64,000 bases of DNA from Aquirufa antheringensis (lineage in GTDB: Bacteria; Bacteroidota; Bacteroidia; Cytophagales; Spirosomataceae). The stretch is from positions 373,662 through 437,661 of the forward strand of contig NZ_SEWZ01000001.1 of the NCBI RefSeq assembly GCF_004307425.1. Direction: 5' to 3'. The translations under genes were made by a program, and so were the position numbers. This document shows, one piece after another, positions 21,641 to 30,174 of this stretch; the first letter of the stretch is position 1, and each line of letters opens with the position of its first letter. The notes below the pieces were generated by a model that did no database searches, was not told where the DNA came from, and worked only from the letters and a program-made list of their open reading frames with translations.

Positions 21641-22168
21641 TTAAGAAATTTGGCTCAAATATCGCTCCTTAATTATCCTAAGGTGGTGTTTTTCATGACC
21701 AGCAATCATCCAAGCTAATGCACGTGCACTGATCGATTTGCCATTTGCCTGGCCCATTTGGTTCCATTGCTTGCTGGAAAATGAGTTCAATAAAACAAAG
21801 GTCGCGACACGGGTAGCCTTGTATTGTGCTAAAATATCCATCGCTTCCTGCGTTTCGTATTCTGATGCCGCCTGGTATTCATTTTCGTCAAATCCTGGTA
21901 AGGCTGTTTTTTCGCCTCTGGATAGTGCCAAAACTCGGTATGAAAAGATTCTTTCCGTATCAACCATATGTCCTAATAAACCTTTCAGGCTCCACTTTCC
22001 TGCTGCATAGGCGAACTCTGCTTGACCTTTAGGTAAATTATCATACAAGTCGATGATTTCTTTGGACTGATTTTTCAATACCTCGAATAAATTTTCTTCT
22101 TTCTCAAAACTCAGATATTCAGCGAAATACGTAGCATTCGGGTATTCGTAGCTAGCAGGTAAATGCAT
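21641..22168 (-). CDS. DinB-family protein
   Basis: A 175-residue four-helix DinB-superfamily protein: KWSLKGLLGHMVDTERIFSYRVLALSRGE near residue 52 and AGHEKHHLRIIKERYL near the C-terminus supply the three metal-binding histidines (one in GHM, two in HEKHH). Function of this branch is unknown; relatives include thiol-S-transferases and stress-induced proteins. It is a different subgroup from the YfiT-like protein at 932-1459. It is divergent from tRNA-Asp. Confidence 0.85.
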   Translation of the reverse strand: MHLPASYEYPNATYFAEYLSFEKEENLFEVLKNQSKEIIDLYDNLPKGQAEFAYAAGKWSLKGLLGHMVDTERIFSYRVLALSRGEKTALPGFDENEYQAASEYETQEAMDILAQYKATRVATFVLLNSFSSKQWNQMGQANGKSISARALAWMIAGHEKHHLRIIKERYLSQIS

Positions 22169-22243: not shown

Positions 22244-22320
22244 GGTCCGGTAGTTCAGTTGGTTAGAATACATGCCTGTCACGCATGGGGTCGCGGGTTC
22301 GAGTCCCGTCCGGACCGCCA
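22244..22320 (+). tRNA. tRNA-Asp (GTC)
   Basis: A 77-nt tRNA with encoded CCA. The acceptor stem GGTCCGG/CCGGACC, the T arm GCGGGTTCGAGTCCCGT and the anticodon loop CTGTCAC with GTC at 22278-22280 are all intact. Its 3' end was the insertion point of the adjacent island. Confidence 0.97.
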
Positions 22321-22358
22321 ACTAAGAGAAAAGCTTCAAAGAAATTTGAGGCTTTTTT
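22306..22358. repeat. island attachment site, tRNA-side copy (att)
   Basis: A 53-bp stretch identical to 27910-27962. It holds the last 15 bases of tRNA-Asp (CCGTCCGGACCGCCA) and the whole tRNA terminator. Duplication of a tRNA 3' end at both borders is the classical footprint of site-specific integration. Confidence 0.92.
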
Positions 22359-22359
22359 T
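22333..22359 (+). terminator. tRNA-Asp terminator
   Basis: GCTTCAAA, loop GAAA, TTTGAGGC (one T-G pair), then seven T. The same hairpin recurs in the right att copy at 27937-27962. Confidence 0.9.
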
Positions 22360-22389
22360 GTGCCCGATTTTAATGGTTTGCAGGGATGT

Positions 22390-25275
22390 TCAATTGTTTT
22401 TATGGTATCCCTCTACAATAAATGTTTCATTAGGTTTAACATTTCCTTTCAACGCACCTCGTCGAAGTTTTATAACTATAGCACAAGTTGCTCTTGCATA
22501 GGTATAGGGTATTGCCTCTTCGAAAATTAGAATTTTTTCCACAATGGATGGGTTGATCTCAAGTTCAATATTGTCAATTTCGTCTTGACGTAGTTCTTGG
22601 TTCTCAATATAGACTTTTAATCCAGGGCCAAATCTATTTTTACGTGGTTGGATAAGTGTATTCAACACGGTGGACATGGAAGGCTGATTTTTAATTCTAT
22701 TTTCACCTACCATAACACTAGGAGAAATACCATTGATTTCATTTGGATCAGATTTTTTAGTCCGAATTACGACTTCTTCCAAAACGGTATTTTCTTTCTC
22801 TTTTCTGATTCTTTCTAAAATAATACGGTTTTTACGATTTTCTAATTCAGCTAAAGATTCCGTTTTATCTAGTAGGCTCCAATTAACCGTTGATTTCGAA
22901 GTTGAAATGGGAGGAGTAGCTGTTAGTGTGTCTAAAATAACTTTATTCTCAGGGGCAATAAAAGTGGCTCTCATTTTACCGTAAAAATCAATGTTTTGAA
23001 AAACAAATTGCTTCTTGGCGACTGTAAAAAATGGCGTTATTTTTTGTTCCGTTGTATCATTTTGAATATTCGATAAAACCATTGAAAGCTTATACTCTTT
23101 TTTATTTTCCTTTCCATCTAATCCAACTATTTGTCCCTTTAAATTAAGCCCCTTTTCTGCTGAATATTTGAGTATAGGGTCAACATTGAAAAAGTGTGAA
23201 AGAGGTTTAGTTAATACTATTTTGTCCTTATTTAAATCATCTTTGGTGATTTCATTTGGATTGATATCAACTATACGTTCACTTAGTTGGTTTCCATTTT
23301 TATCGATCAAAAAACAGTTAATTTCTCCGAACAAAATGTTTTTAGGGATATTGATGAGTAATGTTGGGTTATTGTTTTGAAACCTTTTCCAATAAACTAC
23401 GTGATTTTCTCTAGTTAATAATAGCGTAATTGTATCATTCGATATTTCATTTGTCTGGATAAATACACTTAGTTGTTTTTTACTACTTAAATGATCAATT
23501 GTTAAAATAGTGCCCTTAGGCCGAGATGAGGGGAGAGTAAAGTACTTTTTTCCTACTTTAATTCGATAAACCTCATCACCTTTGGGTAATAAGTCAAATA
23601 CAGTTACACCTTCATTATCTGTATGAGCATTAGTCAAAGTGTCATTATTACTATTCAATAATGAAAAAGGAACACTAATCTTTTCTCCCAAAGTATTCAG
23701 CGTTTCTATGGCCACTTTAGACTTCAAGCTATCCACTAAAAATCCCCCTTCAATATGAACAATTAGCGTATCGAAAACTGATATTGAGGGAACTGATGGT
23801 ATCTCTCTTTTGAAATTTTGAGAAAAAACAGTGAAATCTTGCTTGAAGAATCCTTTATCCGAAAAATTGCGCATCCAATTGGTGTATGCTCGAATCTGAT
23901 ACTTACCAGATGGTAATTCAAGGGAAGTTGGAATGGATAAATCCGCTTTCCCGTCTTCTAACTTTAACGTAAATCGGTTCAATATCTTTTTCCACTTTAA
24001 GTCGATAAACTCAACATACAACGGGATACTTAATTGAGATGGTACACTTTCCTTTGTAATTTGACTTAGCCTACTTTCAGTAACAAATGTCTTCAGTCGA
24101 ATTGTTTCCCCTGCTAAATAATAGGGCTGAATACCTTTAATGTCAATTTTCTCTCTGGGGATTTCAATTAAAGCCTGTATTTGTTGAGGTAATCGGGGTA
24201 AATTTTGAGGAAAGGTAATTTTATTATCTTCAAACAATTCAAAATCTAAAGGCAGTAAATTGGCCAAACGTTTTTCACCCATTTTCCCATTAATTTCAAT
24301 GGAGTAGGGGTCTAACAAATTCCCTTCGGAACTAATTACTATTTCTGATAAAGGCTTTATTTCTGAAAATTGTGCGGATAATTGTTCATTTTCATATACA
24401 ATCACCATGGGTTTATGAATGGTCAAACTATATAAATTAGGTATCGAAGTGGGCTGAATTATTTCTTGTGGGTTACAATCGAAATACAAAGGGGAATTTG
24501 GAGATTTAGTGGATTCAGTATTTAAAAAATACGCCTTAAAACCTTCTTCTTTTAATCGATTATTTAATAATGATTTTAAAAAGTGCCTAATTGAGCCTTG
24601 GTAAGCTATAATTCTATTTTTCTCCCATTGTGCTTTTTGTTTGCTGTTTTGTGGTTCAATTAATTCATATCTACTCAGACCTTTGTATGATATTCTATTT
24701 GATTTTTTTTCAAACCCATCCAGAACGTACGTTTGTTTATAACCTAATTTTAAATTTTCAATAATAATTGGCTGGTTCGCTTGAGCTGAAAACTCCCTCG
24801 TTTCTCGATTGTAGTCAATGTCGATAACCTCTTTATTCAAGATCTTAACTTCTTTTTTATTAAAGTCATTACCTAAAAACTCACTTTCAAATTGTTTGAT
24901 TTGTTTTTCCCAAACCTTATCACGACTTCCTGTAACTTTTACTTCATTTAAGACTTTACTATCTTCTTCTAAGGAAATTTGTATTTCGAGGCTTTTATCT
25001 AAAATTTCAATATTTTGGATAGCTGATTTATACCCAATCATTGAAGCAACCAAACGATAACTACCCAGTGGTATATTTTTTATAATGAAAGTGCCATCTT
25101 GGTTGGTTTGAGTTCCAATAGTTGTGCCTTCAATGAATACATTAACGAAAGGAAATGCGCTATGATTTTTATTATCTAAAACTTGACCCTTTAGGGAGAA
25201 TTTTTGTTGTCCAAAACTGACAAAAGACAGTATTACAAAAACGAATAAGTGTAAATATTTAGCCATGGTTTTCAT
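22390..25275 (-). CDS. large surface protein: CarboxypepD_reg-like, macroglobulin-like and plug-like regions
   Basis: The 961-residue product has a signal peptide (MKTMAKYLHLFVFVILSFVSFGQQ), then a carboxypeptidase-regulatory-like beta-sandwich at about residues 25-110 (GQVLDNKNHSAFPFVNVFI, TIGTQTNQDGTFIIKNIPLG). A middle part near residues 400-480 looks like an MG2 macroglobulin domain (LPSGKYQIRAYTNWMRNF). The last 120 residues (EEVVIRTKK, later ARATCAIVIKLRRGA) resemble the plug of TonB receptors but no beta-barrel follows. Such proteins are common in Bacteroidota and probably sit at the outer membrane; function unknown. The start at 25275 is favoured over 25290 because the signal peptide then begins cleanly. 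It is island cargo. Confidence 0.7.
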   Translation of the reverse strand: MKTMAKYLHLFVFVILSFVSFGQQKFSLKGQVLDNKNHSAFPFVNVFIEGTTIGTQTNQDGTFIIKNIPLGSYRLVASMIGYKSAIQNIEILDKSLEIQISLEEDSKVLNEVKVTGSRDKVWEKQIKQFESEFLGNDFNKKEVKILNKEVIDIDYNRETREFSAQANQPIIIENLKLGYKQTYVLDGFEKKSNRISYKGLSRYELIEPQNSKQKAQWEKNRIIAYQGSIRHFLKSLLNNRLKEEGFKAYFLNTESTKSPNSPLYFDCNPQEIIQPTSIPNLYSLTIHKPMVIVYENEQLSAQFSEIKPLSEIVISSEGNLLDPYSIEINGKMGEKRLANLLPLDFELFEDNKITFPQNLPRLPQQIQALIEIPREKIDIKGIQPYYLAGETIRLKTFVTESRLSQITKESVPSQLSIPLYVEFIDLKWKKILNRFTLKLEDGKADLSIPTSLELPSGKYQIRAYTNWMRNFSDKGFFKQDFTVFSQNFKREIPSVPSISVFDTLIVHIEGGFLVDSLKSKVAIETLNTLGEKISVPFSLLNSNNDTLTNAHTDNEGVTVFDLLPKGDEVYRIKVGKKYFTLPSSRPKGTILTIDHLSSKKQLSVFIQTNEISNDTITLLLTRENHVVYWKRFQNNNPTLLINIPKNILFGEINCFLIDKNGNQLSERIVDINPNEITKDDLNKDKIVLTKPLSHFFNVDPILKYSAEKGLNLKGQIVGLDGKENKKEYKLSMVLSNIQNDTTEQKITPFFTVAKKQFVFQNIDFYGKMRATFIAPENKVILDTLTATPPISTSKSTVNWSLLDKTESLAELENRKNRIILERIRKEKENTVLEEVVIRTKKSDPNEINGISPSVMVGENRIKNQPSMSTVLNTLIQPRKNRFGPGLKVYIENQELRQDEIDNIELEINPSIVEKILIFEEAIPYTYARATCAIVIKLRRGALKGNVKPNETFIVEGYHKNN

Positions 25276-25427
25276 AACTTTATTTACCAAGGTTAAACTT
25301 TTTGAAAATTAAATCCAAATAATAGCACTTGAAGAAATTGATTATAATGTTGACTGTCTGAAAAAGTGGTACTTAGATGCGGTAGTTCTGAATTGGTTGA
25401 ACCTGATAAATTTATTAAATTGGTCGA

Positions 25428-26417
25428 ATGAGAGGTATCGTATTTTTATATATTTTTTTCATACCAATACTTTTGGTAGGTCAAAGTAAATCGGCCAAAG
25501 AGTTTGGATTTCGACATATTGTTTTCGGTTACAAAGGAGATACGGTTGATATACTTATAAAATCGAAAAAAGGTGAGGAAGGTCTTCCGAAACCACTATT
25601 CTTCTTTATTCAAGGGTCACTGCCACATCCTTTAATAATCACTGAAAATGGCGGTAATTACGGAGTGTTCCCATTTGATACTGATAGTCTCGAACAAAGG
25701 TATCATCTCGTTATCGTGGGAAAACCTTTTACGCCAATGATTGTAGATAAAATGAAGTTGAAAAACTTTCAATTCGTAGATAGTACTACTAATAGGTTTT
25801 CAAAGGAATACATTAAACGAAACTATTTGGGTTATTATGTTGATAGGGATATAAAGGTTCTTGAATTCCTCTTGAAACAGAAGTGGGTTAAGAAAAACAA
25901 GTTGGTTGTATCAACACATTCAGAAGGATCTACGATAGGTGCCAAACTTTCTGTACTATATCCCAAGGTTACACATTTGATTTATTCTGGCGGAAATCCA
26001 TTTGGAAGATATATAAATATAATCCTTCAAAATCGATTTGAGGAACTTTCTGATACTACTATAAATACAGAAGACGCCTACAATCAATGGAAAAACATAG
26101 TTAGAGAACCGCAACAAATTGATAATTCTGGCGGTGACACCCATAAAGGAACATTTGGATTTTCCATTCCACCGATAAATTATTTGAGAAAACTGAAAAT
26201 CCCCGTCTTGGTAAGTTATGGTACCATGGATTATTGTAGTCCATTCAATGATTATATGAGATTAGAATTTATCCAAAAAGGAAAGAGAAATTTCACATTC
26301 AAACCTTACATCGGATTAGAACATAATTATTTCCCCAAGGATAAAATGGGTGTAGTAAATCATAATGAATTTTACTGGAACAAGGTGTCAAGTGATTGGT
26401 TAAAATGGTTGGATTAG
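25428..26417 (+). CDS. secreted alpha/beta hydrolase
   Basis: A 329-residue protein with a signal peptide ending near GQS (residue 20). The nucleophile elbow is VVSTHSEGSTIGAKLS near residue 165, where the first glycine of GxSxG is threonine; the probable catalytic acid lies in YGTMDYCSPFNDY near residue 268 and the histidine in GLEHNYFP near residue 301. Substrate unknown. It is divergent from the large surface protein over a 150-bp AT-rich gap and belongs to the island cargo. Confidence 0.72.
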   Translation: MRGIVFLYIFFIPILLVGQSKSAKEFGFRHIVFGYKGDTVDILIKSKKGEEGLPKPLFFFIQGSLPHPLIITENGGNYGVFPFDTDSLEQRYHLVIVGKPFTPMIVDKMKLKNFQFVDSTTNRFSKEYIKRNYLGYYVDRDIKVLEFLLKQKWVKKNKLVVSTHSEGSTIGAKLSVLYPKVTHLIYSGGNPFGRYINIILQNRFEELSDTTINTEDAYNQWKNIVREPQQIDNSGGDTHKGTFGFSIPPINYLRKLKIPVLVSYGTMDYCSPFNDYMRLEFIQKGKRNFTFKPYIGLEHNYFPKDKMGVVNHNEFYWNKVSSDWLKWLD

Positions 26418-26615
26418 TAATTTGTCTTTGATTTAGGAAGGTGCAAATATCTAACTCAAAATGTCGGGATTATATAAATTATATTCTGTTTAGGATTAAT
26501 TAAGAAGGTTTTGTGCTAAATCTGGATCAGAACCTATTAAATTCAAACAATTAGCGTGTCTATCTAATTTTTATACTTTTATATTTTTACCATTTTGTTC
26601 TGCATTATTTCATTC

Positions 26616-26652
26616 AGATTTGTTTCATTCCACCCACTAAGCGAAAGGAATC
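26616..26652. repeat. internal copy of island right-end sequence plus degenerate att
   Basis: AGATTTGTTTCATTCC at 26616-26631 is identical to 27892-27907, immediately before the right att site. The following ACTAAGCGAAAGGAATC resembles ACTAAGAGAAAAGCTTC of the att core. Confidence 0.55.
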
Positions 26653-26732
26653 AAAAATGGGGGTATTCATCACAATCAAAAGACTATTTTTTAATTAATA
26701 TAAAACTCTCAACATTAAATTCTGCAAATAAA

Positions 26733-26813
26733 TTAAGGGTGTAGCCTTAAAAATATTTTTATATTTCAGGTAATAACCTTAAATTTGTATCAAATGTTTC
26801 AGGTAATAGCCTT
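26733..26813 (+). promoter_or_regulatory. three phased operator-like repeats and -7 element before the HTH/Fic pair
   Basis: Copies read AAGGGTGTAGCCTTA (26735-26749), AGGTAATAACCTTA (26768-26781) and AGGTAATAGCCTTA (26801-26814). The CCTTA halves start at 745, 777 and 810 of this kilobase, i.e. 32-33 bp or three helical turns apart. A TAAATTTG -7 element (26780-26787) lies between copies two and three, and the last copy touches the ATG. This suits autorepression by the HTH protein. Confidence 0.6.
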
Positions 26814-27278
26814 ATGAAAAACAATAAACAGTATTTGCTTTTACAGCAAACGGATAAGAAATTACTAGCTTTTAAGGATTTGAAAGCAATAGTAGTGCCG
26901 ACAAAAGGGTGGATCAATACCTTTCGTACAGCATTAAAAATGTCATTGCGCCAATTGGGTAATCGTTTGAATATTGCACCACAAAGTACAAAGGAAATTG
27001 AGGAACGTGAAGCCAATGGAACAATAACGCTCAATAACTTGCGTGATGTAGCTAATGCTTTGGATATGCAATTAGTGTATGGTTTTGTTTCCAAACACGA
27101 GTCATTAGAACAAATGATAGAAAAGCATGCTAAAGTAGTAGCAACTGAGATAGTGATGCGTACTAACAATACGATGACGTTAGAAGACCAACAAAATTCA
27201 AAAGAACGTATTGAGAAAGCAATTGAACAAAAAACTATTGAGATTAAAAGTGAAATGCCAAAATACCTATGGGATTAA
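26814..27278 (+). CDS. HTH protein, mobile mystery protein A family
   Basis: A 154-residue protein with a helix-turn-helix of the XRE type at about residues 33-90 (GWINTFRTALKMSLRQLGNRL, then TITLNNLRDVANALDMQLVYGFV), matching the family called mobile mystery protein A. That family is defined by constant pairing with a Fic-domain partner in mobile DNA, and this gene is followed by exactly such a partner with overlapping stop/start. It probably binds the three repeats in front of it and may neutralise the Fic protein, by analogy with toxin-antitoxin pairs; neither role is shown here. Confidence 0.8.
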   Translation: MKNNKQYLLLQQTDKKLLAFKDLKAIVVPTKGWINTFRTALKMSLRQLGNRLNIAPQSTKEIEEREANGTITLNNLRDVANALDMQLVYGFVSKHESLEQMIEKHAKVVATEIVMRTNNTMTLEDQQNSKERIEKAIEQKTIEIKSEMPKYLWD

Positions 27279-27865
27279 TGATTGAATATATTGACGGTCA
27301 AACACCTTTAAATGAAGAGGAAAAAGAAGGATTGCGTATTCCTTCTATAACCACTCGGGAGGAACTAGACGAATTTGAGCAACTTAATATTGAGAAAGCG
27401 ATTCAATGGACTTTTGGCAAAAAACTAAAGGCAGAACAAGTGTATTCGGAAAAATTCATTAAAGAACTTCATAAGCGTATGTATGGCGAAGTATGGAAAT
27501 GGGCGGGGAATTATAGAACCTCTGAAAAGAATATAGGCATTAAGAGTTATCTTATAGCCATTGAACTCAAACAGTTATTAGATGATGCTATATTTTGGCA
27601 TGAAAATAATACATATGATCCAGAAGAAATGGCTATTAAATTTAAGCACCGTTTAGTGAGTATTCATTGTTTTGCAAATGGAAACGGAAGACATTCACGT
27701 TTAATGGCGGATTTAATCATAGAAAAAATATACGATAACAAATTCTTTTCTTGGGGCAGTGCTAATTTAGTTAAAGCCACAGAGGCGAGAAATAATTACA
27801 TACAAGCAGTTAGAAAGGCGGATAACAACGATATTCAACCTTTAATTGCTTTTGCAAAATCTTAG
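27278..27865 (+). CDS. Fic/Doc-domain protein, mobile mystery protein B family
   Basis: A 195-residue protein with the Fic core motif HCFANGNGRHSR at residues 130-141 (consensus HPFxxGNGRxxR; the proline is cysteine), preceded by YGEVWKWAGNYRTSEKNIGI. Fic enzymes transfer AMP or other nucleotide parts onto target proteins. The catalytic histidine and the GNGR phosphate loop are complete, so activity is plausible. I chose the ATG at 27278 in the TAATG junction; an ATG at 27269 would overlap the partner by ten bases. No clear inhibitory (S/T)xxxE(G/N) helix was found in either protein. It ends 44 bp before the right att site. Confidence 0.85.
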   Translation: MIEYIDGQTPLNEEEKEGLRIPSITTREELDEFEQLNIEKAIQWTFGKKLKAEQVYSEKFIKELHKRMYGEVWKWAGNYRTSEKNIGIKSYLIAIELKQLLDDAIFWHENNTYDPEEMAIKFKHRLVSIHCFANGNGRHSRLMADLIIEKIYDNKFFSWGSANLVKATEARNNYIQAVRKADNNDIQPLIAFAKS

Positions 27866-27891
27866 CCATTTCGCCTAAGTGTTTGATTATT

Positions 27892-27907
27892 AGATTTGTT
27901 TCATTCC
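27892..27907. repeat. right-end 16-bp repeat of the island
   Basis: AGATTTGTTTCATTCC, identical to 26616-26631, ends two bases before the right att copy. Confidence 0.65.
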
Positions 27908-27909
27908 CA

Positions 27910-27962
27910 CCGTCCGGACCGCCAACTAAGAGAAAAGCTTCAAAGAAATTTGAGGCTTTTTT
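27910..27962. repeat. island attachment site, distal copy (att)
   Basis: A 53-bp perfect copy of 22306-22358. It contains only the last 15 bases of tRNA-Asp and its terminator, so it is not a second tRNA gene. It now sits at the 3' end of the radical SAM gene and could act as its neighbour's terminator only on the plus strand. Confidence 0.92.
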
Positions 27963-27977: not shown

Positions 27978-30149
27978 CTATATTACTAATAGCCCCATCT
28001 CCCTTAACTCTTCTGCGATTTCTCCCTGCCAGAAGTTTTCGAAATCACCTAAGCCTGCCTTTGAAAATGCCGCTTGGAATTCAGCAAAGATTCCTGTTTT
28101 TTCAGCGCCCAAGGATAAGTTGGGCAATTCATCCATAAGCCAGGCACCCAGTTTTCCAGAAACCTCTAATTCAACTTCTTCTTTCCCTAAACTGAATAAT
28201 AGGTATTTTTTAGTCTTCGTAGGAACTGGTCCGAGCCAACAAATTTTTGAGGTGGGTTTAGGCATCGATTCTGCCGAAGGTGCTAGAATGCGCTTAATAT
28301 AGTTTTTAGGAATTTGCGTGCGGGGAATTTTGAATTCAAACCATTCCTGCAACGGCATATCTAATCCAATTCCATGCATATAATTGAACAAGGATTTCTT
28401 TAGGCCTTCACTAAACAAGGCATGGTCAGTTCCCGTTGGATCCGCATGCTCTAAATCGTTATTCGCGAAGGTACCTGGTTCAGGATTCAGAATTTGAATT
28501 TGGTAAGCAGCTGGATTTAGACCTACTGGACTGTGAGCCGTAAGTGCAAATTGATGCCAAAATCCCGAATGCATCACCCCATTCTCCACTAGCTGTCTTA
28601 CTACTTCCAGTGAATCTACGGTCTCTTGTGCGGTTTGGGTAGGAAATCCATACATCAAATAGGCGTGTACTAAAATGCCGGCTTGTGTAAAATGATCCGC
28701 TACTTGCGCCACTTGGGCTACCGTTACGCCTTTATCAATTAGTTCCAGCAATCGATCCGAGGCCACTTCCAAACCACCAGAAACAGCGATACAGCCCGAT
28801 CGAACGAGTAATTGGCATAAATCTTTGGTAAAACTCTTCTCAAAACGGATATTCGTCCACCAAACAACGGTCAAATCTCTACGAATAATTTCGAGCGCCA
28901 CATCGCGCATCAAGGCAGGCGGCGCGGCTTCATCCACAAAATGAAAACCATTATTTCCCGTTTGCTGAATCATTGCCTCAATGCGATCGACCAGCATAGG
29001 GGCAGTCGTAGCCTCGTAATCTTTAATATAAGATAAAGAAATGTCGCAAAACGTACATTTGCCCCAATAACAACCGTGCGCAAGAGTCATTTTATTCCAT
29101 CTTCCATCGCTCCACAAACGATGCATCGGATTCGCAATCTCAATGACGGATAAATAGGAATCCAAGGCTAAATCCGAATAATCCGGAACACCCACATCCT
29201 TTTGCTTCACATCGGAATCCTTCGACCCATTCAGGTAGGTAACGGTTCCATCGATGCAACAAAACGTGCGTTTCAGATCTTTCAATTCGCGTGTACCTTT
29301 TAAATGCTTCAAAAGATTCATCAAAGGCGTTTCCCCGTCATCCAGCGTGATAAAGTCCACAAATTCAAACACGCGCGGCTCTTGTAAAGAGCGTAATTCC
29401 GTATTCGCATAACCTCCACCAAAGGCTACTTTGATGGCAGGATGGTGTTTTTTAATCCACTGTCCACAACGCAAAGCACTATATAAATTACCTGGGAATG
29501 GCGCGGTAATGGCGACTAGATCGGGATTTTCGGCCTCGATTTTGGCCTTTAATATATCTATTAGTAATTCATCGATGTAGGTCAGTGGGGCATTCAATGC
29601 TTGGTTTAACTCTTGAAAACTCGAGGCAGACCTGCCCAGGCGTTCTGCGTAGCGACTAAACCCAAAATGCGGATCGACCGCATCAATAATTAAATCAGAA
29701 ATATCTTCTAAGTAGAGCGTCGCTAAATGCCGCGCTTTATCCCGCACCCCCATACTCCCAAAGGCCCATTCTAGATCTGATACTTGCTGAAAACGAGACG
29801 CTTCCGGCAAGTAGTTTTGCTCCGCAATGACATGCGCAAGGGTGGGGTTTTTATCGTGTAAAAAGGAAATAACTGGGTCAATCGTGCGAATGTAGGACTG
29901 TTTCAGTCGAAGCATACGCTGCCCATTTTCATTCCCTTTTTTGCCTGAATTTTCAATGTGCGCAAATAAGTTCTGTAGTCCGTTAGCGGAAAAAAGCTGG
30001 AGAATGACTTCCAGCCCTAAGTCAGCCTGATAAGAGGCCAAACCTTTGGTATTCAAAAAACCTTTCAAATAAGCCGTCGCAGGGTAGGGCGTATTCAACT
30101 GGGTAAAAGGAGGGGTAATGAAAAATACCTTGGGGTCTTTTGTGCTCAT
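27978..30149 (-). CDS. B12-binding-type radical SAM protein
   Basis: A 723-residue cytoplasmic protein. The N-terminal half starts VFFITPPFTQLNTPYPATAYLKGFL and contains DLVAITAPFPGNL and VAFGGGYANTELR, as in cobalamin-binding-like domains of this superfamily. The radical SAM cluster motif is GCYWGKCTFCDI near residue 360 (CxxxxCxxC spacing), followed by GFHFVDEAAPP and GLEVASDRLLELIDKG. Members of this family are often annotated only by domain; the substrate is unknown. The first Met of the longest frame is at 30158, but MSTKDPK at 30149 fits better. Its 3' end abuts the island border. Confidence 0.85.
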   Translation of the reverse strand: MSTKDPKVFFITPPFTQLNTPYPATAYLKGFLNTKGLASYQADLGLEVILQLFSANGLQNLFAHIENSGKKGNENGQRMLRLKQSYIRTIDPVISFLHDKNPTLAHVIAEQNYLPEASRFQQVSDLEWAFGSMGVRDKARHLATLYLEDISDLIIDAVDPHFGFSRYAERLGRSASSFQELNQALNAPLTYIDELLIDILKAKIEAENPDLVAITAPFPGNLYSALRCGQWIKKHHPAIKVAFGGGYANTELRSLQEPRVFEFVDFITLDDGETPLMNLLKHLKGTRELKDLKRTFCCIDGTVTYLNGSKDSDVKQKDVGVPDYSDLALDSYLSVIEIANPMHRLWSDGRWNKMTLAHGCYWGKCTFCDISLSYIKDYEATTAPMLVDRIEAMIQQTGNNGFHFVDEAAPPALMRDVALEIIRRDLTVVWWTNIRFEKSFTKDLCQLLVRSGCIAVSGGLEVASDRLLELIDKGVTVAQVAQVADHFTQAGILVHAYLMYGFPTQTAQETVDSLEVVRQLVENGVMHSGFWHQFALTAHSPVGLNPAAYQIQILNPEPGTFANNDLEHADPTGTDHALFSEGLKKSLFNYMHGIGLDMPLQEWFEFKIPRTQIPKNYIKRILAPSAESMPKPTSKICWLGPVPTKTKKYLLFSLGKEEVELEVSGKLGAWLMDELPNLSLGAEKTGIFAEFQAAFSKAGLGDFENFWQGEIAEELREMGLLVI

Positions 30150-30174
30150 CTGCCTCAAAAGTACTTCAAATGCA

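What the first reader, a model, noticed from the sequence alone, without database searches (positions are those of the whole stretch)
22306..27962. tRNA-Asp island with perfect 53-bp borders and no recombinase
Bases 22306-22358 and 27910-27962 are identical over 53 bp and comprise the tRNA 3' end plus its terminator, the footprint of tyrosine-recombinase integration. Yet all four internal genes are accounted for and none is an integrase. The perfect identity of the repeats argues for recent insertion or ongoing exchange. An integrase-free element this small would have to be moved in trans or be a deletion product.
Basis: partly seen in the sequence, partly recalled or inferred. Interest (0 to 1): 0.72.

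Follow-up and report, generated by a model that had tools for sequence, protein, structure and literature searches.

The report
Decayed integrase-less island at tRNA-Asp
A freshwater bacterium carries a patchwork of foreign genes that slotted in behind its tRNA-Asp gene and no longer has its own insertion enzyme, at a spot where related species carry other foreign genes, two of them with the enzyme still present; the kind of element is already known, but the spot is a busy gene-exchange site.

Summary
In detail: 22306-22358 and 27910-27962 are identical over 53 bp (tRNA-Asp 3' end plus terminator) and no recombinase lies between them. Four sister species (genus Aquirufa) have the predicted empty site. 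The site is a hotspot: other species carry different cargo there, bounded by the same tRNA end and by conserved non-coding arms. Two (G034, G018) still have an integrase and excisionase in the island; three small islands keep fossils of that integrase. The family's right arm is found at the window's distal border (20 bp only) and, decayed, inside the island (26545-26632), fused over a 4-bp overlap to an abiEii gene fragment. The island is best read as a composite deletion product that resembles a cis-mobilizable element (CIME). The host genome has only XerC/XerD-type tyrosine recombinases. The 53-bp identity does not date the insertion: the same 53 bp is 100% identical in two other species. 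Movement in trans is plausible for better-preserved relatives: G007's integrase-free 6.0-kb element matches a copy in G028 at 99.3% over 576 bp although the flanks are 68% identical. New member of a known kind; strict CIME membership is not shown.

The parts
22244..22320 (+). tRNA-Asp(GTC), the attachment gene, intact
22306..22358 (+). left border: tRNA 3' end plus terminator, first copy of the 53-bp repeat
22326..22359 (+). terminator hairpin of tRNA-Asp (15-bp stem, then T run)
   Evidence: fold
22390..25290 (-). cargo: 966-aa protein with N-terminal CarboxypepD_reg domain (ORF from TTG)
25428..26417 (+). cargo: 329-aa alpha/beta hydrolase; found only in G000 among 38 genus genomes searched
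26545..26632 (+). decayed right arm of the tRNA-Asp element family, its att core lost
   Evidence: nhmmer E 6.5e-6; best of 200 shuffles 12.4 bits against 21.2
26628..26694 (-). fragment of an abiEii toxin gene, 63 of 67 bp identical to G002; 4-bp overlap with the arm
26814..27278 (+). mobile mystery protein A (TIGR02612, helix-turn-helix)
27269..27865 (+). mobile mystery protein B (TIGR02613, Fic family)
27890..27911 (+). last ~20 bp of the family's right arm next to the distal core
27910..27962 (+). right border: second copy of the 53-bp repeat
27978..30158 (-). native downstream gene (radical SAM protein), adjacent to the single repeat in empty sites
21641..22168 (-). native upstream gene (DinB family), beside tRNA-Asp across the genus loci fetched

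Best explanation
The 5.6-kb island is a decayed, composite, integrase-less member of a family of integrative islands that use the 3' end of tRNA-Asp in Aquirufa. A full element recombines its own att site with the tRNA core through its tyrosine integrase and excisionase, rebuilds the tRNA and supplies a terminator (genes and ends shown in sequence; catalysis inferred). An element of this family lost its integrase (inferred). Its right end was fused to an abiEii gene fragment by a deletion with a 4-bp overlap that removed that att core (shown by comparison with G002), and the mobile mystery A/B pair lies between this scar and an intact outer border. Because the right flank is uninterrupted as in the empty site of G030, the composite probably arrived as one unit through its outer core sites (inferred). 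With no family integrase found in the genome and with degenerate arms it is most likely immobile now, unless an incoming element of the family joins it in tandem (inferred).
For: Empty sites next to the radical SAM gene in G030, G023, G036 and G012; joined window flanks align to G023 over 588 bp at 84% and to G030 over 376 bp at 92%. A right arm of about 120 bp and a left arm of about 70 bp are shared by islands with different cargo. Integrase (421 aa) and excisionase (96 aa) in the G034 and G018 islands, the integrases 84% identical. Fossils of that integrase in small islands of G022 (121 aa, 82%), G033 (28 aa, 96%) and G016 (38 aa, 63%), and a second fragment in G018. Right-arm model from 13 other ends hits the window at 27890-27924 (E 1.9e-8, core included) and 26545-26632 (E 6.5e-6). 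Deletion scar into abiEii. Tandem junctions elsewhere: G022 C69, G002 C142, G010 C3. G000 has two PF00589 proteins, XerD- and XerC-like, and no match to the G034 integrase.
Against: No integrase fossil in the window island. The left end does not match the left-arm model. The distal arm without the core scores only 6.7 bits, E 0.27, and the internal arm hit has a large composition bias (23.6 against a score of 21.2), though 200 shuffles reach at most 12.4. Descent from an integrase-bearing element therefore rests on arm remnants and on relatives. How the A/B pair and the outer border arrived is not resolved. Comparisons are between species and mostly draft metagenome assemblies.
Confidence: 0.72

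Rival explanations
1. The island is not a remnant but a working non-autonomous element, mobilised in trans by the integrase of a visiting relative.
For: G007's complete 6.0-kb element has both arms and no integrase, yet a copy in G028 is 99.3% identical over 576 bp while the flanks are 67.7% identical; G028 has no match to the G034 integrase. The window's outer cores are identical.
Against: The window island lacks the left arm and most of the distal right arm. The interior of the G028 copy is not assembled, so it could hold an integrase. G007 has a distant relative (34%) of the integrase elsewhere in its genome.
Confidence: 0.17
2. The host's XerC/XerD recombinases inserted the element (IMEX-like).
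For: They are the only PF00589 proteins in G000.
Against: Related islands at the same site carry their own integrase or its fossils. A dif-like site was not looked for.
Confidence: 0.05
3. The second tRNA end arose without a recombinase, by homologous recombination or a duplication that captured cargo.
For: Scars of illegitimate recombination exist inside; gene exchange by homologous recombination was not excluded.
Against: Core and arm are shared by islands with unrelated cargo, and empty sites are clean.
Confidence: 0.04

Closest known systems
CIME, cis-mobilizable element (PMC5704250 and PMC7563491, passages read)
   Same: Remnant without integration and transfer genes, bounded by att sites at the 3' end of a gene, in tandem with other remnants; S. 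salivarius CIMEs with cargo are 1.2-13 kb.
   Different: The integrase-bearing relatives here show no relaxase or T4SS in the proteins scanned, so descent from an ICE or IME is not shown; arms are partly lost; host is a freshwater Bacteroidota.
Additive flexible genomic island fGI-2 of Ca. Methylopumilus (PMC10872708, passages read)
   Same: Variable islands in freshwater bacteria marked by recurring repeats of a tRNA 3' end.
   Different: tRNA-Lys and 20 nt there; here tRNA-Asp, defined arms and an identified integrase family.
Tycheposons (PMC10872708 and PMC11389934, passages read)
   Same: tRNA-anchored cargo carriers; full versions have a tyrosine recombinase.
   Different: No further tycheposon hallmark was tested; the 553/603-aa protein beside the integrase matched no family searched.
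CALIN cassette arrays (PMC11389934, figure-legend passage)
   Same: Units without an integrase that depend on one supplied from elsewhere.
   Different: Units are kilobases long and use a tRNA end; attC sites were not looked for.

Membership tests
Site-specific genomic island in a tRNA gene | tRNA left intact with a direct repeat of its 3' end at the far border | tested here: met
Site-specific genomic island in a tRNA gene | Empty site with one copy in relatives | tested here: met
   G030, G023, G036, G012
CIME | Integration and transfer genes lost | tested here: met
   none among the four island proteins nor by tblastn of related integrases
CIME | attL and attR retained | tested here: inconclusive
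   cores perfect; 20 bp of right arm, no left-arm hit
CIME | Derived by deletion from an ICE or IME | tested here: inconclusive
   integrase relatives and fossils exist; no relaxase or T4SS in 16 of 20 G034 and 12 of 17 G018 island ORFs scanned with Pfam
CIME | Transfer in cis after accretion with a helper | not testable with these tools
   needs excision and transfer assays
Autonomous integrative element | Own integrase inside | tested here: not met
Prophage or phage satellite | Phage genes inside, or the same end in viral contigs | tested here: not met
   no phage gene named among four proteins; 0 exact matches to the degenerate right-end pattern in viral contigs
IMEX (host Xer) | dif-like site at the junction | not tested
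   no dif search was made

The most novel reading that the evidence does not exclude
The tRNA-Asp locus of Aquirufa is a genus-wide cassette dock: modules of about 2-6 kb without an integrase, defined only by a tRNA core and two non-coding arms, pick up chromosomal operons, stack in tandem and spread between species when a rare integrase-bearing member supplies Int and Xis in trans, much as integron cassettes do. The window island is an old, scarred member of that pool.
Probability: 0.3. Interest if true: 0.65.

Novelty: new member of a known kind. Interest (0 to 1): 0.42.

Why it matters
It gives a concrete parts list (core, two arms, Int, Xis) for a hotspot in common freshwater bacteria and makes a testable claim: that elements with no integrase can spread between species on a helper's enzyme. 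It also shows that perfect border repeats at a tRNA are a poor clock when the terminator itself is conserved between species.

Tried and rejected
Recent insertion from repeat identity: rejected, because G027 and G013 carry the same 53 bp at 100%.

Integrase hidden in the island: rejected for the families searched.

Left arm in the window: the sequence after the terminator looks a little like the family's left end by eye, but the model gives no hit there, so it is not claimed.

Plasmid relatives: a distant search with tRNA plus island found 156 records, none covering 80%; 18 of the 20 best rows shown match only the first ~90 bp, the tRNA, one (H1) matches 4% inside the island, and one row is a tRNA match too short to tell more (136 rows not listed).

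Phage origin: the right-end pattern has no exact match in viral contigs.

The unknown 553-aa neighbour of the integrase: no hit in Pfam, NCBIfam, PHROGs or PDB sequences; no fold was attempted.

Papers: 'mobile mystery protein' with 'Fic' gave 0 papers and alone 4 (listing only). 'Aquirufa' with 'genomic island' gave 4; in the two opened by word search the term stands only in reference lists, the other two were not opened.

Full report
tRNA-Asp(GTC) lies at 22244-22320, and 22306-22358 and 27910-27962 are identical over 53 bp: 15 nt of tRNA end, then a terminator hairpin (fold). A search of the window's own assembly (2.50 Mb, 11 contigs, 99.55% complete) with the tRNA region finds one full match, the distal 53 bp, and two weaker partial matches elsewhere.

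The island holds a 966-aa protein with a CarboxypepD_reg domain, a 329-aa alpha/beta hydrolase, and the mobile mystery pair A (TIGR02612, 142.2 bits, cut-off 122.6) and B (TIGR02613, a Fic protein, 251.3 bits, cut-off 124.4). B also matches the PADLOC candidate family PDC-S04 at 2e-22. That such pairs resemble addiction modules is recalled, not tested. The hydrolase is found in 1 of 38 genus genomes, G000 itself. TIGR02613 passes its cut-off in 8 of 38 genomes; in the other seven it lies on a different contig from the tRNA-Asp locus.

The genus is Aquirufa: contig lengths tie G018 to Aquirufa aurantiipilula 15D-MOB, and the 13 contigs with the right-end pattern in genome contigs bear titles of Cytophagaceae, Aquirufa or, once, Spirosoma fluviale (G010). 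Of 37 genus genomes searched with the tRNA region (G000-G036), 30 gave the tRNA-Asp locus next to its usual neighbours; 27 have at least 60 bp beyond the core. My sorting of these 27: four have the radical SAM gene directly behind one copy (G030, G023, G036, G012); two have another gene there that is native in that clade (G010, G029; G010 also has an element right end on another contig); one has abiE genes behind the terminator (G019); eleven have the family's left arm (G001, G002, G006, G007, G009, G018, G027, G028, G032, G033, G034); nine have other sequence (G000, G005, G011, G013, G016, G020, G022, G024, G031), G022 being too short to tell. Joining the window's flanks around one copy gives a sequence that aligns through the junction to G023 (588 bp, 84%) and G030 (376 bp, 92%).

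Islands with different genes share their ends. The right end is about 120 bp of non-coding DNA ending in the tRNA core; the left end is about 70 bp behind a terminator. G013 uses the same core with unrelated ends. In G034 the island is 26.8 kb and starts with an integrase of 421 aa and a 96-aa excisionase-like protein; in G018 it is 20 kb with an integrase 84% identical. C-terminal fossils of this integrase lie in the islands of G022 (121 aa, 82%), G033 (28 aa, 96%) and G016 (38 aa, 63%, with stops in the wider match), and a second fragment lies beside the tRNA in G018. Small islands are thus deletion products at least in those cases. Right end, core and left-end-like sequence stand in a row in G022 C69 (an inner element of 2.0 kb), G002 C142 and G010 C3.

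In the window a right-arm model built from 13 ends of other genomes hits twice: 27890-27924 (E 1.9e-8 with the core, E 0.27 without) and 26545-26632 (E 6.5e-6; arm alone 21.2 bits with a bias term of 23.6). In 200 Markov shuffles of the island the best score was 12.4, and a pattern search expected none by chance. Directly behind the inner arm, 67 bp are 94% identical to part of the abiEii gene that in G002 lies behind the outer terminator; arm and gene overlap by TTCC, so about 0.6 kb with the core and terminator was lost. G027, G015 and G019 carry the same gene there. In the window the outer right border passes straight into the native flank as in G030, so the abiEii piece probably came in with the island. 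The left-arm model gives no hit at the window's left border, and no integrase fossil was found.

Could such elements move without an integrase? G007's 6014-bp element sits in a single-contig genome with none of its four PF00589 matches inside. Its right 576 bp are 99.3% identical in G028, joined there to a different clade's flank (90.6% to G034), while the tRNA-side flanks of G007 and G028 are 67.7% identical. In G027 it is 99.0% over 484 bp and 95.4% over 2178 bp; in G006 97.4% over 233 bp; in G010 95.0% over 500 bp. G028 has no match to the G034 integrase; G007 has one distant relative (34%) elsewhere. The interiors of the G028, G027, G006 and G010 copies are not assembled. G007's cargo is an operon also found at 90% in G000 and 86% in G028 at other places, so the element seems to have captured a chromosomal operon; G028's own copy is 95.3% identical to the G028 element over the 337 bp they share.

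G000 itself has two PF00589 proteins: one passes the XerD cut-off (340.9 against 329.6) and one is best matched by XerC below its cut-off (300 against 335). All 38 genus genomes have PF00589 matches.

Conclusion: a composite, decayed, integrase-less island in a known category. CIMEs are defined as remnants that lost integration and transfer genes but kept attL and attR (PMC5704250, PMC7563491, passages). Here arms are partly lost and no relaxase or T4SS was seen in the G034 and G018 islands, with 16 of 20 and 12 of 17 ORFs scanned by Pfam, so it works like a CIME but strict membership is not shown.

Noticed in passing
L115:10025-11686 (G034) and L039:8449-10260 (G018): A 553/603-aa protein beside integrase and excisionase, also near related integrases (L130, L141, L142), with no Pfam, NCBIfam, PHROG or PDB-sequence match for the G034 protein; two motifs look polymerase-palm-like by eye, untested.
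   Followed up: partly
L037:1769-7782 (G007); G000:C2:439474-444218: The G007 island carries a molybdopterin oxidoreductase operon that G000 has elsewhere at 90% identity: capture of a chromosomal operon.
   Followed up: partly
window 26761-26814: Two 21-bp direct repeats 33 bp apart (90% alike) just before mobile mystery gene A; perhaps its operator.
   Followed up: no
L117:480-700 (G010): Right end, core and about 185 bp before the native flank resumes, like the microCIMEs of S. salivarius (PMC7563491 passages).
   Followed up: no
L061, L048 (G013): A different element family with other ends uses the same tRNA-Asp core.
   Followed up: no
window 27269-27865: Mobile mystery B matches PADLOC candidate defence family PDC-S04 at 2.1e-22.
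   Followed up: no
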